Shown in pieces: positions 2,118 to 22,181 of a stretch of 33,444 bases of DNA (position 1 is the first letter of the stretch; each line of letters opens with the position of its first letter). A program made the position numbers and the translations under genes. This DNA is from Armatimonadota bacterium. Lineage in GTDB: Bacteria > Armatimonadota > JAAZEB01. The notes under the pieces were generated by a model. That model was not told the DNA's origin. It was given only the letters and a program-made list of their open reading frames with translations, and ran no database searches. The stretch is from assembly GCA_012512505.1 (NCBI GenBank), contig JAAZEB010000311.1, forward strand, positions 1 to 33,444. Reading direction: 5' to 3'.

Positions 2118-3251
2118 GTGAGTAGGATGCGCAAGCATATTGATGAGAACACCGGTCGTCAAGTCCGCGTGCTCACCAGCGCGGCCGCTGGCGCGCAGGT
2201 GCCCTACTTCCGCTGCCCGCGGCGTCTGCCGGATGGCCGGGTGATCGCCCTCAGCCAGCATGAGCACGGCAGCCTGCTGGCGGTTGACCCGGAAAGCGGC
2301 GACGTGCAGCCGATCCACAGCAGTGCCGGCCGGCTGCTGCGCCTGCGCGAGGCAGACGGCCGGGCGTGGTTCGTTCAGGACGAGGCGCGCGCGGTGTGGT
2401 CGGCGCTGCTGCCGGACGGCGAGCCGGAGCCGGTGGGGTCGGTGCCCGAGGAGGTGCCGGGCGGGATCGCCGACATCACCTGCGACGGCAGCACCCTCAT
2501 CCTGGCGGACTGCCGCGATAGCGCGGGCGACGCTTCCGGGCTCTATTCAGGCCGGCCGGCCAGCTTCTGGCGCTGGATCTACCGCCCGCGCAGCGCCACC
2601 TTGTGGGCGTACCACCTGCCTGCCCGGCGTGCCACGCGCCTCCTCGACCTGGAGGAGTACTCCTTCCAGCACATCGACACCTCACCCACCGACCCGGACC
2701 TGCTCAAGTACGCCCAGGATGGCCTGGCCGTCTTCGACCAGCGCATCCACCTGCTGCGTACTGATGGGTCCGGGTGGCTGCCGGTGCGCCCCCAGGCCAA
2801 GGGAGAGTGGGTGCATCACGAGTTTTGGTGGCCCGGCGGCCAGCTCGTCGGCTACAAGTACATGAACCGTGTGGGCGACTGGACCATCCACGAGCTGCCC
2901 TGGGGCGAGTACGCCCCCCGCCCCCTACAGCTCGGCATTGCCAACCTGCAGGGGGAAGAGATCTACCTGTCGGATCCCCTCAACTGCTATCACTCCCACC
3001 TCAACGTGTCGGCGGATGGGCAGTGGGTCTGCGGCGAGGGCACCCACAATCACTGCTTCGTCAGCGCCGCGCCCTTCTCGCTGCGGGAGACGCACATTCC
3101 GTTGATGGACCTGGCGACCATCCACACGCCCTACGTGCCCGGCGCCGCCCAGGGCGTGGAGACCGGGTTCAGTGCCGACAACCGCTGGCTCATCTACAAC
3201 GACACGGTCGACGGAGTGAAGCAGGTCTGCGCCGTGCGTGTGGAAGGGTAG
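2118..3251 (+). CDS. Oligogalacturonate-lyase-like / TolB-type beta-propeller protein
   Basis: 377 aa ORF 15 nt after the peptidase stop; propeller-like repeats and the CYHSHLNVSADGQWVCGEGTHNH region resemble oligogalacturonate lyase domain proteins. Start GTG 2118 or ATG 2127. Confidence 0.75.
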   Translation: MSRMRKHIDENTGRQVRVLTSAAAGAQVPYFRCPRRLPDGRVIALSQHEHGSLLAVDPESGDVQPIHSSAGRLLRLREADGRAWFVQDEARAVWSALLPDGEPEPVGSVPEEVPGGIADITCDGSTLILADCRDSAGDASGLYSGRPASFWRWIYRPRSATLWAYHLPARRATRLLDLEEYSFQHIDTSPTDPDLLKYAQDGLAVFDQRIHLLRTDGSGWLPVRPQAKGEWVHHEFWWPGGQLVGYKYMNRVGDWTIHELPWGEYAPRPLQLGIANLQGEEIYLSDPLNCYHSHLNVSADGQWVCGEGTHNHCFVSAAPFSLRETHIPLMDLATIHTPYVPGAAQGVETGFSADNRWLIYNDTVDGVKQVCAVRVEG

Positions 3252-3256
3252 GGGAG

Positions 3257-3327
3257 CGGCCCCCCTCTCCCCCCGAACCCGGGGGAATCCACCAAGTCAC
3301 AAGCGGTTCCCCGGGTTCGGGGGGCCG
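3257..3327. repeat. Large GC-rich inverted repeat (palindromic repeat unit) after the propeller gene
   Basis: CCCCCCGAACCCGGGG(G)AA at 3269-3287 pairs with TTCCCCGGGTTCGGGGGG at 3307-3324; outer CGGCCCCCC / GGGGGGCCG also complementary. Confidence 0.85.
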
Positions 3328-3346
3328 TTCCCCGCGCCCGGTGCCG

Positions 3347-4195
3347 CTACGGGCGGCGCTGCCACGCCCGGGCCGGTGCGCGATCTGGCGCGGCTGGTAG
3401 CGCCTCTGCTACACGGCGCGCAAAGCCCATGATGTGGTGCTGCCGGCCCATGTGGTAGTGATCCCCTTCGCCGACGGCTACCTCGTCGCGCCAGCCGGCA
3501 TACTCGCGCACCACCTTCAGCGCGGCCTCCGGCAGCATGGGGTGGTCCGACGCGAGCTCTGCAAGCATGAACTGCTCACAGACCCAGGCCATCTGGGCGC
3601 CGAAGGAGCATCGGTATCCGCCTCCAATCTGCTTCCCCTTCTCGATCTCGTGGCGATCCTCTGGGTGCGTCTGGAGCTCCATCTTCTCCCCGAGGTGGGC
3701 CCACGCCTCCACAGCGCGACACGCCGCCAGCAGCGCCTGCCGCCCGCCGGCGGGAAGGCGCTGCTGCCGCGCCAACTCCAGGAGGATGTGGGTGCCAACG
3801 ACGAGCCCGTGCCCTGGCTGCGTGCCGAACTCCCAACTCCGCTTGCGCAGGACGGCTTCGTCAATGGCCGCGCCGGGCCCGAACTGGGTGGTGAACGCGT
3901 CGACAGCGGAGAGGATAGTACCCGCCAGGGCCGCGGCATTTTGGTCGCCCGCCGCACCCCATCTGACGACAGCCTCTATCCTGCCTCGGTGGGCCGCCAT
4001 GCTGCGCTCCATGTCAGACGACGGGGTGCCGAACCCAACGGTGCCATGAAACCGCTTGTCGAGGATGTCCAGCGCCTCACGGACATCGCGCGGCAACTCC
4101 GTACCCTGTACCCCCTTGGCGCTGAAGGCCAGCGCGACGCCGACCGCCATCAGCCAACGCAGCCACCCACCCCTGCGACAGATCATAGTTCCCAT
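3347..4195 (-). CDS. Secreted protein of unknown function (cassette gene 2)
   Basis: 282 aa; N-terminal basic + hydrophobic signal-like segment (MGTMICRRGGWLRWLMAVGVALAFSAKG); GGAGGAG upstream of the ATG; starts 23 nt after the end of the upstream minus-strand gene. Confidence 0.7.
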   Translation of the reverse strand: MGTMICRRGGWLRWLMAVGVALAFSAKGVQGTELPRDVREALDILDKRFHGTVGFGTPSSDMERSMAAHRGRIEAVVRWGAAGDQNAAALAGTILSAVDAFTTQFGPGAAIDEAVLRKRSWEFGTQPGHGLVVGTHILLELARQQRLPAGGRQALLAACRAVEAWAHLGEKMELQTHPEDRHEIEKGKQIGGGYRCSFGAQMAWVCEQFMLAELASDHPMLPEAALKVVREYAGWRDEVAVGEGDHYHMGRQHHIMGFARRVAEALPAAPDRAPARAWQRRP

Positions 4196-4218
4196 GTCGA
4201 TTGGCTCCTCCGGCTGGA

Positions 4219-4851
4219 TCAGTTGTGCTCATAGCGTCCGGTCGGGCCGCCGTAGATGGCCGGGCTCGACTCGTACCGGCCCCACCCACCCCACTTGGAG
4301 ATAACCTTCGTGATGACGTAGCCCATCGGCCCTTGCTGCACTCCCGAGATGATGGACGAGTGGTCGTGGGCGTGCTTCATCACCTGGCCTACCGCAGGGG
4401 GCCCGGTGGCGAAATGGTAGTCATCGAACAGAACGAGGGCCTGGTTCACAACCCAGATGTCCGTTCTGCCTGTTAGCGCCATGGCGTGGCAGTTGTAGTC
4501 CGTCGTTGGAAGCGTGAGCGTGTCCCCAATGATGTACTGGCTGTCCGGATTCACCTCGCGCAGGTAGAGCTCCGCCCGGTCGCGCTCCTGGGTGGTGAAG
4601 TCTTGGGTGAAGTGGTAGTGCCCGACATCGCTGTTCTGCGATGTACGGACGCACCAGTCCTGACCACCGTAGCACACGTCAGGGCCGGTGATGCTGTAGT
4701 TCTGGTACGTCTTGTAGACCACGCCGGTGTGTTGGACATCGCCCTCATACCATCGCTGTCCGAATGCCATCATGTCGGCTCTGCTCGGCGGCGATGTTGT
4801 CGCTATCACGGCAAACACCGCCACCAGTAGCCACCGCCTGAGTCCTAGCAT
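4219..4851 (-). CDS. Secreted predicted papain-fold (NCH-type) cysteine hydrolase (cassette gene 1)
   Basis: Signal peptide MLGLRRWLLVAVFAVIATTSPPSRA; DYNCHAMAL, HDHSSIISGV and SKWGGWGRYESSP..YGGPTGRYEHN match the order of the Cys / His / SKWG..G.Y blocks of YNCHG-type papain-like proteins; RBS AGGAGGG before ATG 4851. Confidence 0.65.
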   Translation of the reverse strand: MLGLRRWLLVAVFAVIATTSPPSRADMMAFGQRWYEGDVQHTGVVYKTYQNYSITGPDVCYGGQDWCVRTSQNSDVGHYHFTQDFTTQERDRAELYLREVNPDSQYIIGDTLTLPTTDYNCHAMALTGRTDIWVVNQALVLFDDYHFATGPPAVGQVMKHAHDHSSIISGVQQGPMGYVITKVISKWGGWGRYESSPAIYGGPTGRYEHN

Positions 4852-5246
4852 GTCTTGGCCCTCCTCCTGCTGATCGCCCCTGGGGCGGGCCAAAGAGCCC
4901 CAGGGCCATCATGTGCAATCCCGCAGCACGAATCGCCCTCTCAGGTCATCCCTGACAGCCGACTAGCGCACCATGGAGCGATGGAGGTGGAGGTCCTCGG
5001 GGGGGGGACGGGGACATGGCAGAAGGCCACGCCGACGCAGGAGGTCTACAGTCGCTGGCGAGGCCCAAGGGCCTATGCGCCGGTGGTCTGGCGTTGCCGA
5101 GTACGCGTGCTGGCATGAGCCTCTCCCCCGGGGCACGAGAAACACGCGACTTGCACGCCCTGGATGATCATCCGTGTGAGAAGCTTTGAGGCATGACTAC
5201 AACCGCCCTGAGAGCCCGCGCCGGATGACCAGCCTCAGCAATCTTT

Positions 5247-5276
5247 AGAATAGCATATCGCGTGCTACCCTGTCAA
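5247..5276 (-). promoter_or_regulatory. Sigma70-like promoter for the cassette genes
   Basis: On the minus strand TTGACA-N18-TATTCT (rc of 5271-5276 and 5247-5252), in a visibly AT-richer patch; predicts a long leader of roughly 390 nt to ATG 4851. Confidence 0.6.
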
Positions 5277-5357
5277 TGACAAACCGATGTTCGTAAAGCC
5301 CGAGCGGCACAGGCGCTCGTCCTTCCCGCGTTGTTCCGTCATCCGGCCTAACAGCTT

Positions 5358-5550
5358 CGCGTGCGCCGCGCCCTTCTCGCTGCGGGAGACGCACATTCCG
5401 TTGGCGGACCTAGCGACCATCCACACGCCCTACGTGCCCGGCGCCGCCCAGGGCGTGGAGACCGGGTTCAGTGCCGACAACCGCTGGCTCATCTACAACG
5501 ACACGGTCGACGGAGTGAAGCAGGTCTGCGTCGTGTGCGTGGAGGGGTAG
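5358..5550 (+). pseudogene. Duplicated 3' fragment of the propeller gene at 2118-3251
   Basis: GCGCCGCGCCCTTCTCGCTGCGGGAGACGCACATTCCGTTG... through the stop codon is near-identical to 3065-3251 (7 differences counted by eye in the coding part); encodes only about 62 aa of the C-terminus. Confidence 0.85.
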
Positions 5551-5865
5551 GGGAGTGGCCCCCCTGTCCCCCCGAGATCGGGGGGAATTAGCGGGGATGG
5601 CCCCCCTGGCCCCCCCGATCTCGGGGGGAACCGTCTCTGCGGTGAGGGAGTGGCCCCCCCAGTATTGGGGGGGGAAGGGGGGGCTGAATGTTGGCCCCCC
5701 TAGCCCCCCGAATCCGGGGGGAACTGTCTCTGCGGTGAGTGGGTGCCCCCCCAGCATTGGGGGGGAAGGGGGGGGCTGATAGCATTGAGTTCGCGATTCG
5801 CAATTCGCGATTCGCGATAGTCTCAGGCCCCAGCATTGGGGGGAAGGGGGGCCATCGGCCCCCCG
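5551..5865. repeat. Cluster of GC-rich palindromic repeat units with a 93-bp tandem period
   Basis: Repeated CCCCCCGAGATCGGGGGG, CCCCCCCGATCTCGGGGGG, CCCCCCCAGTATTGGGGGGGG, CCCCCCGAATCCGGGGGG, CCCCAGCATTGGGGGG; GAACcGTCTCTGCGGTGAG at 5628 recurs at 5721. Confidence 0.9.
5791..5818. repeat. Four tandem 7-mers TCGC(G/A)AT
   Basis: TCGCGAT TCGCAAT TCGCGAT TCGCGAT read directly. Confidence 0.85.
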
Positions 5866-5877
5866 GGCATCCGTGTG

Positions 5878-7665
5878 CTACTCCGTCTTCTCGATGGCGG
5901 CGCGGCGCTGCTGGGCGCGGCGGAGGCGCTCCAGGTCGAACTTGGCGCGCCGGTCGAAGGTGTAGATGCCGTTCTGCTCCTGGTAGACATCAGTGAGCTG
6001 AGTGTAGCAGTAGCCGAACATGCGGGGATCCTCCAGCAGCACGGCGCAGAGGCGCTCGAAGCGCTCGTAGAACTCCTCCAGCGTCTTCGGGCGCTCGCCG
6101 TAGCCCCAGGAGTCTTCGCCCGGTTTGGCGTCTGGGTTCCACCAGATGCCGCCGAACTCACTGACGAAGAACGGCTGCCCCCGGTAAGGGATCGACCAGG
6201 GCCGATCCGCCGGGCCGTTGGCAAACGGCTTCCCCTCCGCCAGGCCGGCCTGGTTCGCGCGGAATTTCTCGGGGTTCTGCTCGTAGTCGTGGCAGTCGTA
6301 GATGTCCGCCTCGGGCACGCGGTGCGAGTAGCCGGAGGTATCCAGCACCGGCCGGCTGGTGTCCAGCGCCTTGGCGGCTAGGAACATGCCGCGGGTGACA
6401 TCATCCAGGATGGTCACCTCATCGGTGATCGCCTGGTGCGTCTCGTTGAGGGGGCACCAGCCGATCAGGCTGGGGTGCGAGTAGTCGCGCTCGATCACTT
6501 CCAGCCACTGGGTGATGTAGGTGGCGCCGGGGCGCTGGTGATCCTCGCCGGCGCCGAAGCCACCGCAGCCCCAGTCGGCAAACTCGCCCCACACCAGGTA
6601 GCCCAGTCGGTCGGCGTGGTAGAGGAAGCGCTCCTCGAACACCTTCTGGTGCAGGCGCGCGCCGTTGAAGCCGGCGGCCTGCGCCAGTTCGATGTCGCGC
6701 ACCAGCGCTTCGTCGCTGGGCGCGGTGAGGATGCCATCCGGGTAGTAGCCCTGGTCGAGCACCAGACGCTGGAAGAGGACCTGGCCGTTCAGCTTCACCG
6801 CCGGGCCATCGATGGCGATGCTGCGCAGGCCGGCGTAGCTGGTGGCGCGGTCGACGACGGCGCCGGTTTCGTCCACCAGGGTGAGCTCAACGTCATAGAG
6901 ATGGGGATTGCCGGGCGCCCAGAAGTGGCGGCGCTCCGGAGGAATCGCCAGGTCGAGGCGCGGGGCAAGGTCCAGGTCGGCACGGCATTCGGCGGTGCAG
7001 ACCACCCCGTCGGCATCGCGGAGGGTGGCGCGCAGGCGCAGGCCAGGCCGGTTGGCGCTGAGCGGCTGCTCCAGACGGATCAGGCCGTTGGCCACGTCCG
7101 GCGTGAGGCGGGGCCGCTTCAGGGCACACTCGGGCACCGGCTCCAGCCACACCGTCTGCCAGATGCCGGTCGTGCGCGTGTAGAGGCAGCCGAAGTTGCC
7201 ATAGCGCGGCGACTGCTTTCCCCGGGGCTGGGGCAGGCCGTTTCGGTCGCGGGCGCGCACCACCAGGGTCACCTCTTCGCCCGGCTGGGCCACCCCGGAG
7301 AGGTCGCAGGTGAAGGGGGAGAACCCGCCCCGGTGCCGGCCGACCTCCACGCCGTTGGCCCATACAGTGGTATCATAGTCCACCGCTTGGAAGTGAAGCA
7401 GCACCTTGCGGCCGGCCCAGGCCTCGGGGATGCGCACGATGCGGCGGTACCACACGGCGTTCATGAAATCGGTGTGCCCGATCCCGGAAAGGCGCGACTC
7501 GGGGCAGAAGGGCACGACGATGCGGGCGTGGAGAGGGCGGTCGCGCAGGCCGCGCTCCAGGCCGCTGTCGCCGGCATCGATCTCAAACTCCCACTCGCCG
7601 TTGAGGCAGAGCCAGTCGTCGCGAACGAACTGCGGGCGAGGATACTCCGGTCGTGGTATGCTCAT
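5878..7665 (-). CDS. Glycoside hydrolase family 2 protein
   Basis: 595 aa; N-terminal sugar-binding domain (LNGEWEFEID), acid/base motif WCPLNETH, nucleophile motif FFVSEFGGIWW. Confidence 0.9.
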   Translation of the reverse strand: MSIPRPEYPRPQFVRDDWLCLNGEWEFEIDAGDSGLERGLRDRPLHARIVVPFCPESRLSGIGHTDFMNAVWYRRIVRIPEAWAGRKVLLHFQAVDYDTTVWANGVEVGRHRGGFSPFTCDLSGVAQPGEEVTLVVRARDRNGLPQPRGKQSPRYGNFGCLYTRTTGIWQTVWLEPVPECALKRPRLTPDVANGLIRLEQPLSANRPGLRLRATLRDADGVVCTAECRADLDLAPRLDLAIPPERRHFWAPGNPHLYDVELTLVDETGAVVDRATSYAGLRSIAIDGPAVKLNGQVLFQRLVLDQGYYPDGILTAPSDEALVRDIELAQAAGFNGARLHQKVFEERFLYHADRLGYLVWGEFADWGCGGFGAGEDHQRPGATYITQWLEVIERDYSHPSLIGWCPLNETHQAITDEVTILDDVTRGMFLAAKALDTSRPVLDTSGYSHRVPEADIYDCHDYEQNPEKFRANQAGLAEGKPFANGPADRPWSIPYRGQPFFVSEFGGIWWNPDAKPGEDSWGYGERPKTLEEFYERFERLCAVLLEDPRMFGYCYTQLTDVYQEQNGIYTFDRRAKFDLERLRRAQQRRAAIEKTE

Positions 7666-7762
7666 GGGTGTTCCTCCCAGGTAGTCTGATCAGCCAAGGG
7701 ACGAGTTCGGCGCGGGAGGATGGCTCCCTGCCCAGGAGGGAGTAAGGAGAGGGTGACTGAAC

Positions 7763-7797
7763 GAGGGGCGGCGCTAGCCCGGATCACGCCGCCCCTC
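7763..7797. terminator. Strong hairpin in the intergenic region
   Basis: GAGGGGCGGCG ... CGCCGCCCCTC perfect inverted repeat; no clear T-tract. Confidence 0.4.
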
Positions 7798-8194
7798 GCC
7801 TGTCCTGGTGCCCCTCATCATTAGATGGGGCGACCAAGGCCCGCTGGCAGGAGGTCGAGTGCTGGCCCGATGGGGAACCGGCAGCCCGGTTCCCGCTGGC
7901 AAGTGACGCCGCGCTCTGCCGGCACGCGGCGCCCTGCCAAAGCGAGTTTCGAAGGAGGTCCGCCCCGGGCGCTGCGCGGCAGCCGATCCGGGCGCGGCAG
8001 GTGGCTGGCGTCGCGTAAGCGGCACCAGCGCGCCTCTGCACTCAAGACGCACAGCGGTGCCTCTGCGTGAAGTTGCAGGGTTTTGCGCCCTCCTCCGCCG
8101 CCAGCGATCTAAGACGACCGGATGCCCACGCCATCGGGCCTCTGCGTCGCACGCGCCCCGGCTACCCGCTGGGCAACCCAGCACGGCCGCGCTC

Positions 8195-9688: not shown

Positions 9689-11479
9689 CTACTCCGCCTT
9701 GTCGAGCGCCTCCATCACCTGCGCCCGGTAGCGCTCGGTGGGCAGGTTCCACTCGTTGAACATCAGCAGGCCGGTGCGGCCGGCGATGTCGAACAGTCGT
9801 TCCGCTATCTTCCGGCGCTCGGCCACCGTGCCATAGCCAAGCTGCAGGCGCGCGTACATCAGCGGCAGGCGGGCAGCCTGCACGCGCAGGAGCTGATCGG
9901 CGTTGCCTTGCACCAGGCGCTCCGCCTCGTCGAACAGCGTCTCGTAGATCGCCATCCGCTCCTCGGAGAGGTAGCCATCGCGGTGGTCGGCCGGCCCGCC
10001 GAAGATCATCAGCGTCTTGCCAGACTGCTCCAGCGCGTCGTGCATTCGGTCGATGTACTCGCGAATCTTCGGCGCCGCCGGCCCGTAGTAGCCCTCCAGG
10101 AAGTCGTTCATCACCCGGTTGAGGTCACAGTCCGGGTTCCAGAGGAGCTTGGCCAGCAGGTAAGCGCGCAGTTCGGCGAACTCGCCGCCCCGCTCGCGGT
10201 TTCCCTGGGCGAACATCCCCTTGGCGTGGTTGTCCACGAAGAAGCGCACGTTCGGCTGCAGCACGCGCAGGTTGGGGAAGGGGCTCACCAGGTTGCTGAA
10301 CTGCACCACGTAATCCCAGACGAAGACGTTGTCGCACACGCGCGCCCAGCTCTCCACGTCGTCGCGGAACGCCGCGCTGTCCGGGTCACTTTGGATCGGG
10401 CGGCTGCGGTTGCACTCGATGCTGCAGAGCATGATCAGCACGTTCTTCGCCGGGCGCAGCGTTTTCGGTGGGCGCCGGGTATACTGGTAGGCGAGGGTGG
10501 AGAGCGTCTTGTCCGGGAACTCGGCGGCGATTCGGTTGACGAACGTCAGCACCGAGCCCATCGGCGTGCCCTCGCGATCGTCAATCGCCTTGCACTCCGG
10601 GCACTGGCAATAGCGCGCCCAGTCGTTTTGGCTCACCGACCAGTAGTGCGCCTCCGGCGCGGCGGCCATCCGCTGCTTCAGGTCTTCCACGGTCAGCCGG
10701 AACACGTCCGGGTTGGTGAGGCAGAGCTGGCCGTCGGCGACCCGCTTGCCGTCCACCAGCGAGAAGTACTCGGGATGCGTGGCGAAGTAGCGGTCGGGCG
10801 GCACATGGTTGAAGAAGGTGTGGCACCACAGCCCCCAGCGGGGGTGGTACTCACGGATCAACCGGCCGTCGCGCACCTCGCTGCCATTGCCGTTGAGCTT
10901 TTGGCGGGCGGCGAAGGCGGGATCCATCGCGTCTTGGTAGTAGACCTCCCGGACCGGCAGCGCCGGCACCTGGGTATCATCCAGCGGAGCGAGGCGGAGG
11001 TCGCGCCGCTGGGGGATCACGCTCACGTCGGAGCTGAGCCAGCGGCAGCCAAGGTGCTCTTCAAGGAAGGTGTAGACCCCGTAGAGGGTGCCATTGGCCG
11101 GGCCACCGGCGATGACGAGGTGGTTGCCGACGGTGCGGATGGTGAAGCCTTCCTGCCCCAGCCGCGCGAAGTCAATCGGCCGCCGCAGCCGGGCGGTGTG
11201 ACGGTTGCGGCCCAGCAGGATCGTGCGCGGCGCCAGGCGCTCGCGGTCGGACACAATCGGCAACTCGGCGCCGGTAACCTCACGGATAAAGTGCTGCAGC
11301 TCGGACGCAGCCCGCTGTTCCGACTCCGTGGCTGTCTCCGGCACGACGATACGATAACTGCTCTTCCCGCGGCTGACCAGCGTCAGCGTCCGGTCGCTGC
11401 TGGCTGCCGTGGCCTCACTCGCCAGACAGGCGGCTGCCGCGAGGACTCCCCCCAGCACACACGCACTCCATGGACCCAT
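9689..11479 (-). CDS. DUF4838 domain-containing protein (alpha-glucuronidase-like N-terminus), secreted
   Basis: ASELQHFIREVTGAELPIV, GTLYGVYTFLEEHLGCRWLSSD, and the CQCPEC region are typical; signal peptide from MGPWSACVLGGVLAAAACLA (ORF extends to 11515). Confidence 0.8.
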   Translation of the reverse strand: MGPWSACVLGGVLAAAACLASEATAASSDRTLTLVSRGKSSYRIVVPETATESEQRAASELQHFIREVTGAELPIVSDRERLAPRTILLGRNRHTARLRRPIDFARLGQEGFTIRTVGNHLVIAGGPANGTLYGVYTFLEEHLGCRWLSSDVSVIPQRRDLRLAPLDDTQVPALPVREVYYQDAMDPAFAARQKLNGNGSEVRDGRLIREYHPRWGLWCHTFFNHVPPDRYFATHPEYFSLVDGKRVADGQLCLTNPDVFRLTVEDLKQRMAAAPEAHYWSVSQNDWARYCQCPECKAIDDREGTPMGSVLTFVNRIAAEFPDKTLSTLAYQYTRRPPKTLRPAKNVLIMLCSIECNRSRPIQSDPDSAAFRDDVESWARVCDNVFVWDYVVQFSNLVSPFPNLRVLQPNVRFFVDNHAKGMFAQGNRERGGEFAELRAYLLAKLLWNPDCDLNRVMNDFLEGYYGPAAPKIREYIDRMHDALEQSGKTLMIFGGPADHRDGYLSEERMAIYETLFDEAERLVQGNADQLLRVQAARLPLMYARLQLGYGTVAERRKIAERLFDIAGRTGLLMFNEWNLPTERYRAQVMEALDKAE

Positions 11480-11689
11480 TCTGCCCTCCAGACCGGTTGG
11501 TGGGGCAAGCGGCACGTTCGTGAACCCCGAAAGGATGGTCGGGTATGAGGCGCGGCGCGGAACCCGCGCGCGGCCAGGCGCAGCCAGACTCCGATCCCCT
11601 CTTCACGATCGGCGCGGCGTCGCGGGTGAGGCGAAGGCGTGGCTGGCCCCGGCCGGGCGGGCCGAAGCCGCCTGCTTGCTCCCACAACC

Positions 11690-13951: not shown

Positions 13952-14803
13952 TCAGGCGCGCCGCAGCAGGCTGAGGCCGCCGGCCGCCAGCAGCAGCGCG
14001 AACGAAACGATGACGATGCAGGCGGCCGAGGGAACGTCGCGCACGTAAGAGAGGTAGAGCCCAATGCCAACCGGGAGCACGCCCAGGGCCGCGGAGACCG
14101 GGAACGCCCGCCGCAGGTGTCGGGTGAGCAGCAGCGCCGTCACCGGCGGCAGCACCAGCATGGCGAAGACCAGGAGCACGCCCGCCACCCGGATGGCAAA
14201 AGCGATCGTCACTCCCAGCGTCAGGTAGAAGAGCAGCTCCCAGCGGCGCGTTCGGTAGCCCACGGCGTCGGCGGTCTGCGGGTCAAAGGCGACGAACAGC
14301 AGCTCCTTGGCGAAGAGCAGGTGGACGAGCGCCACCGCTGCGGCGGCGGCGAGGAACTCCCAGATCTCGCGCACCGACACGTAGAGGATGTTGCCGAACA
14401 GGAGCTGCATCACGTGTGCCTCGCCCTTGGCGCTGTGCGCCATCAGCAGCAGGCCTGCCGCCGCCGCGACGGCATAGCCGACGCCGATCGTGCTTTCCGG
14501 CGGCACCCGCCGGGCCGACCAGCGCACTGAAAAGAGGAGCACCCCCACCAACATCAGCACCACGGCCCCGACCATCGTGAGGGGGTTGTGCTCCTCCATC
14601 TCCAGGCCCAGCACCCCCGCCGTCCAGAGTGCCAGCGCTACCCCGGCGGAGCTCATCTCCGCCAGCGCCACGCCCACAAACACGATGCGCTTCAGCACCA
14701 CGTAGACCCCCAGGTAGGCGCACAGCGCCCCCACGGCCATCCCCGCCAGCAGCGCGTGCTGCATGAAGTCGCTGCCAAACGCTTCTTGGATTGAGGCAAA
14801 CAT
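13952..14803 (-). CDS. znuB: Metal (Zn/Mn-type) ABC transporter permease
   Basis: ABC-3 family: MAVGALCAYLGVYVVLKRIVFVGVALAEMSSAGVALAL; adjacent to ATPase and solute-binding protein genes. Substrate not proven. Confidence 0.85.
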   Translation of the reverse strand: MFASIQEAFGSDFMQHALLAGMAVGALCAYLGVYVVLKRIVFVGVALAEMSSAGVALALWTAGVLGLEMEEHNPLTMVGAVVLMLVGVLLFSVRWSARRVPPESTIGVGYAVAAAAGLLLMAHSAKGEAHVMQLLFGNILYVSVREIWEFLAAAAAVALVHLLFAKELLFVAFDPQTADAVGYRTRRWELLFYLTLGVTIAFAIRVAGVLLVFAMLVLPPVTALLLTRHLRRAFPVSAALGVLPVGIGLYLSYVRDVPSAACIVIVSFALLLAAGGLSLLRRA

Positions 14804-14840
14804 GCAGTAGTTCTTGCTTCCTCTCGTGCGGGCGCGGTGG

Positions 14841-15629
14841 CTACCAGGTGGCCACCCGCCGACCGTTCACCTGCCCCACGGCGATCGGGATGCCGTAGAG
14901 GCGGCTCAGGTGCTCCGGGGTGGTTGCCTCCGCCACCGGCAGCACGGCGAAGTCACTGGCTCCTAGGAAGGCGATGTGGCTGACGTGGGCAATCACCACG
15001 TTCAGCAGGTGGCTCACCACCAGCACCGTCAGCCCGGACTCCCGGTGCAGCCGGTCAATCAGGTCCATCGTGGCGCGCTCCGCCGCTGGATCCATGCCGT
15101 TAGTGGGCTCGTCCAGCACCAGAATGTCCGGGTCGGCGGCGAGGGCGCGGGCCATCAGCACGCGCTGCCGCTGCCCGCCGGAGAGGTCGCGGAACAGGAG
15201 CGTGGCGCTGTCGGCCAGGCCTACTTGCTCCAGGGCGGCCAGCGACCGCGCGTGGTCCGTTTTTCCCGGCCGGCGGAAGAGGCCGACGCGCCGGTAGCGG
15301 CCCATCAGCACCACGTCGAGCGCGGTGAGGGGGTAGATCTCGTCAATCGTCTGAAGCTGGGGCACGTAGCCGAAGGTGAGCGTGCCGCCGCCGCGCCCGG
15401 GAGCGCGCGTCACCCGGCCGGCCTGGGGCCGCAGCACCCCCAGCACCGCCTTTAGCAGCGTGGTCTTGCCCACGCCGTTGGGCCCGACGATGCCCAGGTA
15501 GTCGCCGGCGTACAGGGTGAAGCTCAAGCCGGAGAGGACGCGCTTGCGCCCATAACCAAGCTCCACCCCCTCGAAGCGTATCAGCGGCGTGGCCGCTGCC
15601 GGCTCGTCCGCTGCCGAAGCCTGCTGCAT
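14841..15629 (-). CDS. znuC: Metal ABC transporter ATP-binding protein
   Basis: Walker A GPNGVGKTT, signature LSGGQRQRV, Walker B ILVLDEPTNGMD; start ATG 15629. Confidence 0.9.
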   Translation of the reverse strand: MQQASAADEPAAATPLIRFEGVELGYGRKRVLSGLSFTLYAGDYLGIVGPNGVGKTTLLKAVLGVLRPQAGRVTRAPGRGGGTLTFGYVPQLQTIDEIYPLTALDVVLMGRYRRVGLFRRPGKTDHARSLAALEQVGLADSATLLFRDLSGGQRQRVLMARALAADPDILVLDEPTNGMDPAAERATMDLIDRLHRESGLTVLVVSHLLNVVIAHVSHIAFLGASDFAVLPVAEATTPEHLSRLYGIPIAVGQVNGRRVATW

Positions 15630-15689
15630 GGGATCTCCTGTCCTCACCGAAGTGGAGTGCCGGGGCAAAGGCCCTCCACGCTCCACGGC

Positions 15690-16604
15690 CTACTGGCAGG
15701 CACGCTGGAACGCCTGCACGATCCGGTCCACGAAGCTGAGGTAATCCTGGGTGCCCAGGACGCCGATGGAGTAGGGGGCCCACTCCAGACGGGCGCCCGT
15801 CTCGCGCGCCACGAACTCCGGGAAGCGCTTGGGGTAGATCGTTTCCACCACCATCGCCTTCACTTTCTCGCGCTTCATCGAATCGATCAGCCGGCGCAGG
15901 TAAGCCGGTGACGGGGGGATCCCGGGTTTCGGCTCCAGGGTGGCGAACTCGCGCACGCCGAAGCGGTTCATGAAGTAGACCCAGTTCTTGTGGTAGGTGA
16001 CTACGGGGGTGCCCTTGCAGGCGGCCATCGCGCGCTGCCAGCGGGGCATGGCGGCATCGATCGCGGCGACGAACCGCTGGTAGTTCGCGTCGAAGGTGGC
16101 GGCATCGCCGGGGCTTACCCGGCGCAGGCCCAACAAGATGTTGTGGGCGATCACCTTGCCGCAGCCGGGGTCGTAGTAGTAGTGGGGGTTGCCCTGCGCG
16201 TGGATGTCGCCCGACGCGCCGCTGATGCGCTCGGTGGGGACCTCCAGGCGCTTGATGCGCGCCGAGGCGTCGACGTAGCCGGGCCCACCCGGGCTCACCC
16301 GCTTGTTGCGCGCGGCGCCGAGGAGGGCATCCGCCCACTGGTCAAAGTCCATGCCGACGCGCACGAACAGGTCGGCTTTGCTCAGGCGGGCCACGTCGCT
16401 GGGACGGGCCTCCACCCGGTGGTAATCCTGGTTCGGCTGGGCGATGCTGGTGACGCGCACCTTGGCGCCGCCCACCTCGCGGGCAATGGCCGCCAGCTCC
16501 GGGATTGTTGCCACCACCTCGAGGGCGGCCCGGGCTGCCACCGCCGGCGCGGCCAGCAGCGCGAACGCCAGGGCCGCGGTCACAATGTGTTTCCCGATGC
16601 TCAT
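15690..16604 (-). CDS. znuA: Metal ABC transporter periplasmic solute-binding protein
   Basis: Signal peptide; ligand-type motifs QPNQDYHRVEARPSD, NPHYYYDP, TYHKNWVYFMNRFGV typical of cluster A-I binding proteins. Confidence 0.85.
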   Translation of the reverse strand: MSIGKHIVTAALAFALLAAPAVAARAALEVVATIPELAAIAREVGGAKVRVTSIAQPNQDYHRVEARPSDVARLSKADLFVRVGMDFDQWADALLGAARNKRVSPGGPGYVDASARIKRLEVPTERISGASGDIHAQGNPHYYYDPGCGKVIAHNILLGLRRVSPGDAATFDANYQRFVAAIDAAMPRWQRAMAACKGTPVVTYHKNWVYFMNRFGVREFATLEPKPGIPPSPAYLRRLIDSMKREKVKAMVVETIYPKRFPEFVARETGARLEWAPYSIGVLGTQDYLSFVDRIVQAFQRACQ

Positions 16605-16628
16605 CTTTCTCTCCCTCCGCGGCAACCG

Positions 16629-17903
16629 TTATTCCAACTGATGGGTGTGCGGGCCCATGCCCCACACGAGCTGCAGCCACGCCTCGGAATAGCTCCCCTG
16701 GCCCGGCCGGGCCCCCTGCGTCAACTGCAGGCGGGCGTAGCTCTGCTCGCTCACCGCGTGGGTGTAGATCGCCGAAAGCGCCGACTCGTGCTGGCCTGCC
16801 GCCTCCGGGATCTCCGACCAATCGTACAGCAGGCCGAAGTCCCCATAGCGGCTGAAGCGGTAGTTGGCCAGGGCGTAGTAGCCGGTGCTGGTGCCGCCGT
16901 CCACGTCGGGGCGATAGCGGTGCCAGAGGTACTCGGCGCGCAGCAGCAGGCGGCGGGCCCCCTGGCCATAACGCCGGTAGCTGAGGTCCACGCCGGTGAC
17001 CACCAGACTGCGGTTGGCCACGCCGCCTCCGGGCAGCGTGAGAGGCTCCGTGGTGCCGCGCGCCCAGCTCCCGCCCAGCTCCAGCTCGCCCGCCCGCCCC
17101 AGGCCAAGGCCCGACCAGGCGCGCGCGGTGTAGAACTTGTCGCTGAAGTTGGCGCCGGGGCCTTCGAGGATGCCGTGGTCGTTGTCCTCCTCCTGGCGGG
17201 CGGCCAGGGTGTGCTCTTCGGCCTCCTCGTGGTGGTGGGAGTGGGAGTGGCCGGCCTGGGAGTAGGTGCCGGCATCCACCTGCAAGAAGAGGCGGCGGCC
17301 GGTGGGGGCCAGCCAGGAGAGGCTCAGCCCGTTGCCGGTGAGCGACTCGTGGCTGACCAGGTTCTGCCAGGCGAGCGGCCGGCGGACGTAGAGCCAGGAG
17401 TGTGGATGCTTCTGGTTGTCTCGCCCGAACGGCACGAAGAACTTGCCCAGGCGCCCGGAGAGCCGGAGTGGGAGCTGCTCGTGGGTGAGGTAGCCCTCCT
17501 CCAGCTCCACCTTGAACTCGCCGTGCCCGGGCGCCACCAGATACGCATCGGCGCGGAGGTGTGGGTAGACGTAGCTTTGGATGCCGATCTCGGCTTCTTC
17601 CAGCCCGATCCGGTTGCGGTCGGTGTCGCGCGGGTCGCTGCTGAGCTTACCAAGGGCGAGGCCGATGAAGCTGATGTCGGGGAGCTGCAGGTGGCGGCCG
17701 CCTCCCGCCGCGGTGGGCGGCGTGCCGTCTGGCTCCGCCGGCTCGGCCTCCGGCGGCGGGGGCGGCGGCGCTTCTGCCTGGGCGACGCGGACGCCGGGCA
17801 GCGCCAAAGCGCTCGCGCCGCCCTCTGCCAGGGCGCGTGAGCCGGCGGCCAGCAGGGCCGCCGCCGCCAGCATCACGAGCCGGGTGCTGAGGATCTGGGT
17901 CAC
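16629..17903 (-). CDS. Outer-membrane porin-like beta-barrel with His-rich loop
   Basis: Signal peptide; alternating aromatic/beta pattern (LRADAYLVAPGHGEFKVELEEGYL, LSGRLGKFFVPFGRDNQKHPHSW); loop GHSHSHHHEEAEEH. GTG start 17903 preceded by AGAAGGAGAG. Confidence 0.7.
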   Translation of the reverse strand: MTQILSTRLVMLAAAALLAAGSRALAEGGASALALPGVRVAQAEAPPPPPPEAEPAEPDGTPPTAAGGGRHLQLPDISFIGLALGKLSSDPRDTDRNRIGLEEAEIGIQSYVYPHLRADAYLVAPGHGEFKVELEEGYLTHEQLPLRLSGRLGKFFVPFGRDNQKHPHSWLYVRRPLAWQNLVSHESLTGNGLSLSWLAPTGRRLFLQVDAGTYSQAGHSHSHHHEEAEEHTLAARQEEDNDHGILEGPGANFSDKFYTARAWSGLGLGRAGELELGGSWARGTTEPLTLPGGGVANRSLVVTGVDLSYRRYGQGARRLLLRAEYLWHRYRPDVDGGTSTGYYALANYRFSRYGDFGLLYDWSEIPEAAGQHESALSAIYTHAVSEQSYARLQLTQGARPGQGSYSEAWLQLVWGMGPHTHQLE

Positions 17904-18102
17904 GGAATGCTCTCCTTCTGCCATGTTCCCACGCGCGGTCACGGCCGGGCCCCGGTTGGCGGTGGGGCAGGGCACGCCCCGCCGATACCGGAGACCCTGG
18001 CGTGGTGGCCCCCCGTCGTGGGGTGGTGCCGACCCGCGCGGGTGTTGTCGGCCGCGCGCTGCCAAAGGGCAGGCGTGCGACCGCTGGTTCTGGGGTTTGT
18101 TC

Positions 18103-18474
18103 TCAGGCAGAAGGAGTGGGGGGAGCGCGCGAGGGGCAGCCGGCAAGGGTGGGCCGGCAGGGGGGGATCGTGGCGTTGCCCGGGTGCAGCCGTACCACCA
18201 TCGGTAATGGCAGGTGCGGCCGGCCGGCGGTGACTCCGGCGGTGGCCGACCGGCTCCAGAAGCAGGCCACGCAGCTTTCCGGGGTGTCGGAGGTGGCGCC
18301 GTCGGCCGAGGTGATGGTAGGCGCGCCGGTGCTGGCGATCGGCAGGTGGTGTTCGCCGTCGGGTCCGTGTCGGTGGAAGGCCGCGAACCCGCCCATCAGC
18401 AGGAAGGCGCACGCAACCGCCAGCGCCGTGACCCGGCGCCCTCGGCTGTGTTCCCTTCCGCCGTGAGCCAACAT
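18103..18474 (-). CDS. Small membrane-anchored/secreted His- and Cys-containing protein, possibly DUF2946-like
   Basis: One hydrophobic N-terminal segment (TALAVACAFLLMGGFAAF), HRHGPDGEHH, CVAC, C-terminal SRAPPTPSA; GGAGG upstream of ATG 18474; first gene of the metal operon. Confidence 0.55.
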   Translation of the reverse strand: MLAHGGREHSRGRRVTALAVACAFLLMGGFAAFHRHGPDGEHHLPIASTGAPTITSADGATSDTPESCVACFWSRSATAGVTAGRPHLPLPMVVRLHPGNATIPPCRPTLAGCPSRAPPTPSA

Positions 18475-20011: not shown

Positions 20012-21955
20012 CTACGAACGGCGCTTCTGTAGTGCCTCCTCACAGGCGGAGACCACGCCGCGCAGGTCGTCGGGGCTGCCGTAGAACATGCCGGATGAGG
20101 CGTGCGCGCGATGGAAGGTCGAGAAGGCATCCACGGCCTGCCGCAGTGCGGCCAGCCGGGCAGGGGCCGACGGTTCCGCGGAGTTGATGGCCTGCTGGCA
20201 AGCCTGGTGCGCGCGGTCCACCTCGGCGAGCAGACAGGCATACTCGTTCTGCACCCACGCGTCCTCCACGCCTCGCCGGGCGTCCGGATCGTCCGCCTTG
20301 GCCCGGGCTTCGTCGATGAGCGCGCGGAGGCGCTTCGGGTCGCGCACGTACCGGCTGGCGAGGGACCATGTGTTCGCCACGCGCTCGACCGGCTCCTCGG
20401 CGGCGGCGCGCTCCATACCCTCCGCGATGGCCCGGTAGTAGTGCTGCATCGTCTCCGCCGCGGCCCCGTAGCGCCCCTCACAGAAGCGTCGCATCACCTG
20501 CCACACGTCCTGGTCGAGGTCCCACAGCAGCTCCGCGTTCAGGTAGGCGCTCGTCTCCGCGCTGCGGAACCAGGTGTGCGAGAGGCCCCAGATGGCCGCC
20601 CCCTCGATCCCCAGCAAGCGCAGAAAGCGGTAGTCCTCCTTCATCGTGGTGAAGGTAGGCCACCACGGCACGGGCTGGGTGATGCCGCACCAGTAGTCGG
20701 TCACCATCATCCGGCCGCCGGCTGCGCGGCGCCACCCGCGCAGCACTTCGGCATACTGGCGAGAGCGCGTGCAGCGCTGGTCGCCCAGCGAGTGCAGAGC
20801 GCACCGCCAGTAGAGCCAGACCAGCACGTTCAGGTCAGGGTCCGCTTCCGCCGCGCCCGGCGGTTCGATGGTCGGGGAGTAGGCGTCGTACCAGAGGGTC
20901 ACACCGGGCCGCTGCGAAGCGAGGGCGCGGCGCACGTCGGCCACGAAGCGGAGGAGAAGGGGCGTGGCGTCCGGCACGCCCTCTCCCGGCCAGATGCGCT
21001 CGCACGTTCCGGTGACCAGGCGCGCGCACTCCGGACATTGGCAAAACGCCCACCCGTCTCCCTGGAGCAGGCTGAGGTGCGCCAGCTCCGGGTGCTTCTC
21101 GGTGGTCGACTCCAGGGAGCGCGCCACGGCGGCCACGGTCTCCGGGTTGGTGGTGCAAAGTTGCGTCACCATCGGGTCGGTCTCGACGGCACGCGCGCCG
21201 TCGCGCAGCGCGTAGTAGTGCGGATGGGTGGCGCCATGGCGGTCGGGGGGCAGGATCGTCCCGAAGGCGTGGTTGGCGGCGCCGCTCATCAGCCCGCGCT
21301 TGCGGATCTCCGGCAGCAGGCGCGTCTCGAAGTGCGCCCACGCATAGCACCACCCCATGCGGAAGAGGTTCAGCTTGCGCTTCGCGGCCCAGTCGATCAG
21401 GGCCACGTCACCCTCGGGTTCGGTCGGGTGGGGCATCGCGTCGAAGGCGCGCAAGGGGAAGGCCGGCGCCTCCCGGCGCTCGCACGGGCGCAGCACGAGT
21501 GGGTCGTGCCGGGGGATGCGCTCGCCGTCGGGACCGGGCACTGTCCAGCGCGCCCCCAGATCCCGCTCCAGGAGGTCATAGACGCCGTAGAGGGCCGCCC
21601 GCGGCGAGCCCCCGATCACCAGCGCGCGGTCCTGCTCAACCCGGATGAGGAACCCCTCCTCGCCCAGTTGGCCGGCTCGCTCGCTCAAGGCGCGCGTCCG
21701 AAGGTACGGGGCCAGTGAGGTAGCGGTGCCGACCGCCACGAACGGCCGGTCCTGCGGCGCCCCCGACTGGACCGGGAACGGCGCGTCCGCCATGCGCGAC
21801 AGGTAGCGCGCCAGTTCCCCCGCCGCGAACTGCTCGACGGCGTCCTGCCCCGGGCAGACTATTGGCCCGAGCGCCCTGCCCGCGCGCGCGAGCGTGAGAC
21901 CTTCCGCGGCAGCACCGGTGGTCGCCATGAGCAGCACCCCCAGGATAAGGAGCAA
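20012..21955 (-). CDS. Second DUF4838 domain-containing protein, secreted
   Basis: GELARYLSRMADAPFPVQSG, AALYGVYDLLERDLGARW, CQCPECARL; signal-like LLLILGVLLMATTGAAA. The ORF to 22159 starts inside an 8-mer repeat, so a TTG near 21955 or another internal start is preferred; start uncertain. Confidence 0.75.
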   Translation of the reverse strand: MLLILGVLLMATTGAAAEGLTLARAGRALGPIVCPGQDAVEQFAAGELARYLSRMADAPFPVQSGAPQDRPFVAVGTATSLAPYLRTRALSERAGQLGEEGFLIRVEQDRALVIGGSPRAALYGVYDLLERDLGARWTVPGPDGERIPRHDPLVLRPCERREAPAFPLRAFDAMPHPTEPEGDVALIDWAAKRKLNLFRMGWCYAWAHFETRLLPEIRKRGLMSGAANHAFGTILPPDRHGATHPHYYALRDGARAVETDPMVTQLCTTNPETVAAVARSLESTTEKHPELAHLSLLQGDGWAFCQCPECARLVTGTCERIWPGEGVPDATPLLLRFVADVRRALASQRPGVTLWYDAYSPTIEPPGAAEADPDLNVLVWLYWRCALHSLGDQRCTRSRQYAEVLRGWRRAAGGRMMVTDYWCGITQPVPWWPTFTTMKEDYRFLRLLGIEGAAIWGLSHTWFRSAETSAYLNAELLWDLDQDVWQVMRRFCEGRYGAAAETMQHYYRAIAEGMERAAAEEPVERVANTWSLASRYVRDPKRLRALIDEARAKADDPDARRGVEDAWVQNEYACLLAEVDRAHQACQQAINSAEPSAPARLAALRQAVDAFSTFHRAHASSGMFYGSPDDLRGVVSACEEALQKRRS

Positions 21956-22149
21956 TGGAGTAGCGGAGTAGCGGCGGGATGGGGCGGCCGGCCGGCGGCT
22001 GCCGGTGCTCCCCTCCTGTCGCGCGTGAGTGCCCTGGCGCCGGCGTTCGGCCCCCCGAACTTGGGGAGCCAAGCCCGTCACGAGCCCTCGGACCACGGCA
22101 CGGGTTTGCTCCCATGCCGCTCGGGCAGCCCAGACGCACGAGACCTCCG

Positions 22150-22181
22150 ACTCCATCACTCGATCACTCCATCACTCACTC
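22150..22181. repeat. Four tandem 8-mers ACTC(C/G/A)(A/C)TC
   Basis: ACTCCATC ACTCGATC ACTCCATC ACTCACTC read directly. Confidence 0.85.

What the first reader, a model, noticed from the sequence alone, without database searches (positions are those of the whole stretch)
3065..5600. Two-gene secreted cassette flanked by a duplicated gene 3' end
The last 187 nt of the propeller gene plus the start of the following palindromic repeat (3065-3287) recur at 5364-5587, about 95% identical by eye. Between the copies lie two divergently oriented secreted-protein genes with their own promoter. The left copy completes an intact gene and the right copy is an orphan fragment. That is the footprint expected when DNA inserts at, or recombines through, a gene end while restoring the target. 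The interior also looks lower in GC than the flanks (not computed). No integrase or transposase is visible, so the mechanism may be recombination at the palindromes or a trans-mobilised cassette.
Basis: partly seen in the sequence, partly recalled or inferred. Interest (0 to 1): 0.65.

Follow-up and report, generated by a model that had tools for sequence, protein, structure and literature searches.

The report
Foreign cassette behind duplicated gene tail
A two-gene piece of DNA for secreted proteins sits between two slightly different copies of the tail end of a neighbouring gene, and the same layout at two other places in this bacterial phylum suggests that such pieces enter genomes by ordinary recombination in gene ends, leaving the target gene whole and needing no transposase or integrase of their own.

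Summary
The duplication is real: 3052-3288 recurs at 5351-5588 (93% overall, 95% from 3065), and covers the last ~200 nt of the propeller gene plus the start of a palindromic repeat. Two details of the finding are wrong. The two enclosed genes are both on the minus strand (p2 4851->4219, then p1 4195->3347), not divergent. The interior is only mildly AT-richer (65% vs 68.5% GC), with ordinary codon usage. Beyond the finding: p1 has only five loci in 291 Armatimonadota genomes. One, in genome G265, has the same layout at an unrelated gene: cyclase tail / p1 / second cyclase tail (88%). Two same-genus genomes show the empty site there (cyclase directly followed by the SDR gene). A third case with other cargo lies in the window's own genome, behind clpB (117 nt, 92%). 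In all three the repeat ends 2-37 nt past the stop codon. In two the tail copies differ mainly synonymously (P=0.006 and 0.004 against neutral decay), so they look like alleles of two lineages. Best explanation: a small foreign circle carrying a gene tail plus cargo integrated by one homologous crossover, leaving the gene intact. No integrase was found. Mechanism and donor are inferred; no empty site exists for the window itself.

The parts
2118..3251 (+). Intact target gene: 377-aa beta-propeller-like protein (weak Pectate_lyase22/oligogalacturonate-lyase similarity)
   Evidence: ORF; Pfam E=1e-3, below cut-off; full-length homologues at 50-53% in G012, G260 and G229, one truncated by a contig end in G286
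3052..3288 (+). Left copy of the duplicated gene tail (last ~200 nt of the gene plus 37 nt into the palindromic repeat)
   Evidence: 222 of 238 columns identical to 5351-5588; C-terminus VCAVRV matches homologue L061
3252..3330 (.). Palindromic REP-type hairpin between the convergent 3' ends of the propeller gene and p1 (shared terminator or dispersed repeat)
   Evidence: fold -58.8 kcal/mol, z -3.7; the same motif class has 66 matches in the genome vs 1 for the reversed control
3347..4195 (-). Cassette gene p1: 282-aa protein with N-terminal signal-like segment, all-alpha model, no known family
   Evidence: relatives at about 32% in G265 and G061, fragments in G260 and G062; no Pfam, NCBIfam, PHROG or PADLOC family above cut-off; AF2 pLDDT 70.5, no fold match with E<=0.001
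4219..4851 (-). Cassette gene p2: 210-aa protein with signal-like N-terminus and conserved NCH, HxxxHSS and KWG motifs (papain/NlpC-like reading is from memory, not tested)
   Evidence: homologue at 33-37% directly upstream of a p1 homologue in G260, same order and strand
5247..5276 (-). Sigma-70-like promoter match upstream of p2-p1
   Evidence: TTGACA-18-TATTCT, 10 of 12, 1 found vs 0.5 expected in shuffles
5351..5588 (+). Right, orphan copy of the gene tail, in the context taken as native
   Evidence: differences fall in clusters around a 118-nt identical block (P=0.0003)
5555..5870 (.). Array of palindromic repeats between the orphan tail and the GH2 3' end
   Evidence: fold of 5551-5645 z -4.3
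5878..7665 (-). Right flanking gene: glycoside hydrolase family 2, convergent with the propeller gene; orthologue at about 80% in same-family G001
   Evidence: Pfam

Best explanation
Foreign DNA was added in the 3' end of the propeller gene by a single homologous crossover. A donor fragment carried the last ~200 nt of a related propeller allele, the palindrome that followed it there, and the p1-p2 pair. The fragment closed into a small circle (its cargo end joined to the cut edge of the gene tail) and crossed over inside the resident gene's tail. The product is intact gene with one tail, cargo, then the cut-off second tail in the resident's own downstream context. Because the fragment carried a gene end, the target gene stayed functional, and only such events survive. 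Host RecA-type recombination suffices; no integrase is required. SHOWN: the layout, its recurrence at three unrelated genes, the empty site in one case, the synonymous bias in two cases, repeats ending at stop codons, and no recombinase in the insert. INFERRED: the circular intermediate, the donor allele, RecA dependence, and which tail is the donor's. A linear version (homologous at one end, illegitimate at the other) gives nearly the same footprint and cannot be told apart here.
For: 1) Same layout, different genes: window (propeller, 238 nt); G265 (cyclase, 91 nt, 88%); G000 contig C2 (clpB, 117 nt, 92%). 2) Empty site for G265: cyclase followed 41 nt later by SDR in same-genus G264 and G048; G265 keeps second tail, 38 nt, SDR. 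3) Tail copies differ by 12.6% and 7.9% in G265 and clpB, with 3 and 2 amino-acid changes where neutral decay predicts 7.0 and 6.0 (P=0.006 and 0.004); left and right G265 tails are equally far from relatives. So these copies diverged as parts of working genes in separate lineages. 4) The repeats stop 37, 6 and 2 nt after the stop codon, as expected if donor and resident share the gene but not the downstream neighbour. 5) Experimental precedent: in E. coli, small non-replicative DNA carrying a lacZ end mostly integrated by single crossing-over of a circle, leaving partial-gene duplications of 109-950 bp (PMC3240628). 6) In the window the 11 coding differences cluster around a 118-nt identical block (P=0.0003), a sign of crossover or gene conversion within the tails. 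7) Rare, patchy cargo: p1 in 5 of 291 phylum genomes.
Against: In the window itself the coding differences are not synonymous-biased (6 of 8 changed codons alter the residue, P=0.21), which fits a decaying copy as well as a foreign allele. No donor genome with gene tail plus cargo was found. No empty site exists for the window and none was sought for clpB. Insert codon usage is not foreign. Having the same rare p1 family in two of the three cases is not predicted by a cargo-blind mechanism.
Confidence: 0.5

Rival explanations
1. Remnant of a site-specific integrative element (or a satellite mobilised in trans) that uses gene 3' ends as attachment site and restores the gene with its own tail, as prophage e14 does in icd; the integrase was lost or acts from elsewhere.
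For: The e14/icd footprint is very similar: restored gene and a displaced 163-bp icd' pseudo-copy (PMC6379469). An element-borne tail under selection also explains synonymous differences. p1 recurs in two cases.
Against: No integrase in any of the three inserts (1.0-2.1 kb); three unrelated target tails with no shared motif between the two compared would need different integrases, all lost; p1 and p2 match no PHROG family above chance and p1 has no relative in viral contigs.
Confidence: 0.2
2. Tandem duplication of the propeller gene, then loss of the 5' part of the second copy, with p1-p2 being original neighbours or later arrivals.
For: The window copies differ without synonymous bias, as in a decaying duplicate; no close relative exists to exclude it.
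Against: In all three cases only the last 90-240 nt survive, and the repeat stops at the stop codon although a tandem duplication would copy downstream DNA too; the G265 empty site has no second cyclase in G264 or G048; G265 and clpB copies reject neutral decay.
Confidence: 0.13
3. Assembly chimera of two co-occurring strains: one with gene tail plus cargo, another with gene tail plus the downstream region.
For: The genomes are fragmented drafts (G000 396 contigs; G265 and G061 are MAGs), and the two tails look like two alleles.
Against: The join at the start of each right copy shares only about 5-8 nt with the gene (window GCTTCG), far below any assembly k-mer; the longest identical run in the G265 tails is 14 nt while its contig name shows k=141; no runs of N; seen in independent assemblies.
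Confidence: 0.09
4. One-ended or rolling-circle type capture (IS91/ISCR-like), or exchange between the dispersed palindromic repeats, brought the cassette in.
For: The palindromic repeats are abundant (66 matches vs 1 control) and border both tails in the window.
Against: No transposase; no palindromic REP repeat in the G265 copies; recombination between repeats alone does not copy 200 nt of the gene.
Confidence: 0.05

Closest known systems
Single-crossover integration of small circularised DNA, and homology-facilitated illegitimate recombination (E. coli lacZ assay, PMC3240628; Acinetobacter, Pseudomonas stutzeri, Streptococcus pneumoniae)
   Same: Foreign DNA flanked by a partial duplication of the target gene; duplication sizes of 109-950 bp overlap the 91-238 bp here; needs only a stretch of homology at a gene end
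   Different: Known from laboratory constructs; here three natural cases in Armatimonadota, with diverged tails and intact target genes; circle and RecA role are inferred
Prophage e14 in the icd gene (integrative elements in 3' ends of protein genes)
   Same: Target gene restored by a slightly different tail, displaced tail left as a pseudo-copy on the far side (163 bp, PMC6379469)
   Different: No integrase, no phage genes, only 1-2 kb; different target gene each time
Transformation-made merodiploids (S. pneumoniae, PMC3784515)
   Same: Additive recombination that leaves duplicated chromosomal sequence
   Different: There very large tandem duplications between existing repeats; here short gene tails around new cargo

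Membership tests
Site-specific integrative element in a gene 3' end (e14/icd type) | Gene tail duplicated, target gene left intact | tested here: met
Site-specific integrative element in a gene 3' end (e14/icd type) | Tyrosine or serine recombinase in the element | tested here: not met
   p1 and p2 match no recombinase family; no Pfam recombinase among the window ORFs scanned; the other inserts encode p1 or a DUF3034-like protein
Site-specific integrative element in a gene 3' end (e14/icd type) | Common attachment core | tested here: inconclusive
   window and G265 tails no more alike than shuffled sequence; each case could have its own core
Single-crossover (Campbell-type) addition of foreign DNA | Direct duplication of a gene portion on both sides of new DNA | tested here: met
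   three cases
Single-crossover (Campbell-type) addition of foreign DNA | Tails come from two lineages | tested here: inconclusive
   supported in G265 and clpB by synonymous bias; undecided in the window (P=0.21)
Single-crossover (Campbell-type) addition of foreign DNA | RecA dependence and circular intermediate | not testable with these tools
   needs experiment
Tandem gene duplication with decay | Relatives carry a full second copy, or downstream flank is duplicated too | tested here: not met
   G265: relatives have one cyclase followed by SDR; repeats end 2-37 nt past the stop in all three; relatives test not possible for the window
Transposon or insertion sequence | Transposase, terminal inverted repeats, short target duplication | tested here: not met
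   no transposase; no inverted repeat found bounding the insert; duplication is 238 nt of gene
Integron gene cassette | attC site and integron integrase | not tested
   No integrase seen in the ORFs scanned; attC structures were not searched for

The most novel reading that the evidence does not exclude
p1-bearing units are a family of integrase-free mobile cassettes that carry the 3' end of a resident gene as a homology arm: they enter a conserved gene by host recombination, restore it with their own tail, and can leave again by recombination between the two tails. p1 (alone or with p2) would then be a trait, perhaps a secreted effector with partner, that such units repeatedly spread in Armatimonadota.
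Probability: 0.18. Interest if true: 0.65.

Novelty: new variant of a known kind. Interest (0 to 1): 0.42.

Why it matters
Most newly arrived genes in bacteria have no visible means of entry. A readable footprint, cargo between two diverged tails of the same gene with the gene intact, would let one count recombination-driven gene gain from draft genomes and identify donors from the foreign tail. It also gives p1-p2, a protein pair without any known family, a first genomic context.

Tried and rejected
Empty site for the window by propeller homologue (60 relatives, then 291 phylum genomes): best 53%, no synteny. Empty site by GH2 orthologue: no synteny in G001, G010, G005 or G008. Third p1 locus G260 (p2-p1 seven nt after a GH35 stop, p1 frameshifted): no tail duplication above shuffled background; GH35 relatives not syntenic downstream. 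G061 and G062: contigs end beside or inside p1. G286 propeller stopping near residue 309: contig end, not truncation. p1 in viral contigs: none. Families of p1 and p2 in Pfam, NCBIfam, PHROGs and PADLOC: none above cut-off. p1 structure model (pLDDT 70) has no significant PDB or BFVD match; p2 model failed (pLDDT 36); weak PDB sequence hits for p2 are to designed propellers on a 29-residue stretch and were ignored. Other repeats in the genome sample were REP-type palindromes, prepilin or LamG-like paralogues, or tandem genes.
Full report
OBSERVATION. The window is contig C224 of a 5.66-Mb, 396-contig draft genome; its phylum relatives include records titled Armatimonadota/Armatimonadetes MAGs. 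Positions 3052-3288 align to 5351-5588 with 93.3% identity. The repeat holds the last ~200 nt of an intact 377-aa propeller-like gene and the first 37 nt of a palindromic repeat. The stretch between the copies (3289-5350) holds two genes, both on the minus strand: p2 (4851..4219, 210 aa) and p1 (4195..3347, 282 aa), 23 nt apart, with one sigma-70-like match upstream at 5276..5247. GC of the insert is 65.2% against 68.5%, and codon usage is at the 41st-45th percentile of 568 genes of the genome, so composition does not mark it as foreign.

CONTEXT. The propeller gene and p1 converge on a strong hairpin (3252-3330, z -3.7), and the orphan tail and the GH2 gene (7665..5878) converge on an array of similar hairpins (5555-5870, z -4.3). 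The motif CCCCCCGA-N(2-4)-CGGGGGGAA occurs 66 times in the genome against 1 for the reversed control, so it is a dispersed palindromic repeat. The right copy with its array and GH2 thus looks like the original downstream context. This is inference: no close relative with the propeller gene exists among 291 phylum genomes (best homologue 53%), and the ~80% GH2 orthologue in G001 is not syntenic.

A SECOND CASE. p1 has only five loci in the phylum set, three of them also in the GTDB contig collection. In G265 (JAUWOG010000288.1) the p1 homologue (32-33% identity) lies behind a cyclase gene, and the last 85 nt of that gene plus 6 nt recur after p1 (L089 326-416 and 1378-1468, 88%). Same-genus genomes G264 and G048 carry the cyclase followed after 41 nt by the SDR gene, while G265 has the second tail, 38 nt, then SDR. 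That is an empty site and a filled site. The insert there is AT-richer (55% GC against 62-67%). The two G265 tails are equally distant from three relatives (left 72, 67, 75%; right 74, 69, 75%) and 86% alike.

A THIRD CASE, OTHER CARGO. A survey of 1.1 Mb of the window's genome gave, apart from palindromic repeats and paralogues, one further clear gene-tail duplication: clpB on contig C2, whose last 115 nt (plus 2) recur at L130 905-1021 (92%). They enclose 1.43 kb with a gene for a 248-aa secreted, DUF3034-like protein and a truncated hicA-like remnant, the latter read by eye. The layout is therefore not limited to p1.

WHAT THE TAILS SAY. If the orphan tail were simply a decaying copy, changes should fall on all codon positions. 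In G265 11 nt differences give 3 amino-acid changes (7.0 expected, P=0.006), and in clpB 9 give 2 (6.0 expected, P=0.004). Both copies therefore diverged mostly while part of working genes, i.e. in two lineages. In the window 11 differences give 6 changes (P=0.21), which does not decide. There, however, the differences cluster around a 118-nt identical block (P=0.0003), and some two-base differences are explained by one step each from the residue in homologues (ATG and GCG from a valine GTG; CGT and TGC from an arginine CGC; compare). The last point is an argument from parsimony, not a test. In all three cases the repeat stops 2-37 nt after the stop codon, so the downstream flank was not copied.

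MECHANISM. A circle made of gene tail plus cargo, integrating by one crossover in the resident tail, predicts all of this: intact gene, cargo, cut-off tail, native downstream DNA; tails from two lineages; homology ending where gene order differs; no recombinase. There is direct precedent: in E. coli small DNA carrying a lacZ end mostly integrated by single crossing-over of a circle and left lacZ duplications of 109-950 bp (PMC3240628). Only fragments with a gene end leave the target intact, so selection alone can explain why gene tails are seen. The closest natural look-alike is prophage e14 in icd, with a restored gene and a 163-bp displaced tail (PMC6379469), but it carries an integrase (general knowledge); none is present here.

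HOW STRONG IS THE LINK TO p1. Of three p1 loci with both flanks readable, two have the duplication; G260, with a frameshifted p1, has none. Against a background of about one other case per 1.1 Mb, finding it at the second p1 locus by chance would be rare, but the numbers are small and the thresholds were set after the fact. I keep 'p1 units are recurrent cassettes of this kind' as the novel case at 0.18.

CARGO. p2 and p1 occur in the same order and strand in G260, so the pair is older than this insertion. p1 is predicted all-alpha without significant fold match. p2 keeps NCH, HSS and KWG motifs between the two homologues; a papain-like secreted enzyme is a guess from memory. A secreted enzyme with a partner or inhibitor is a plausible but untested reading.

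LIMITS. Draft genomes, no reads, no donor, no empty site for the window, survey of about 20% of one genome. Strain chimerism is unlikely, because the joins share only 5-8 nt with the gene and occur in independent assemblies, but it was not excluded by reads.

Noticed in passing
G000 contig C2 (L130) 905-2572: Tail of clpB duplicated around a 1.43-kb insert with a secreted DUF3034-like gene and a truncated hicA-like remnant: the third case of the same layout.
   Followed up: partly
L089 (G265, JAUWOG010000288.1) 326-1468: p1 homologue inserted between cyclase and SDR genes with duplicated cyclase tail; empty site in G264 and G048.
   Followed up: yes
window 3252-3330 and 5555-5870; 66 places in the genome: Dispersed REP-like palindrome CCCCCCGA..CGGGGGGAA, often in arrays and between gene ends, not described here as any known family.
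   Followed up: partly
L146 2781-3211 and 9712-9838; L166 4387-4595 and 14377-14515 (G000): A second dispersed palindromic repeat type (CGGAGTGCCCGAGCCATCGGGC...GCCGCAGC..TGCGGC) in the same genome.
   Followed up: no
window 13952-16625, minus strand: ABC metal-uptake operon (ABC-3 permease, ATPase, ZnuA-like binding protein) followed by a 505-aa protein without Pfam match (16629-18146).
   Followed up: no
window 9689-11515 and 20012-22159, minus strand: Two DUF4838/GH67-N proteins in one window, part of a set of glycan-related genes (GH2, BNR, tricorn-like protease).
   Followed up: no
L088 (G260) 7090-7943: p1 homologue broken by a frameshift next to an apparently intact p2 homologue, seven nt from the stop of a GH35 gene.
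   Followed up: partly
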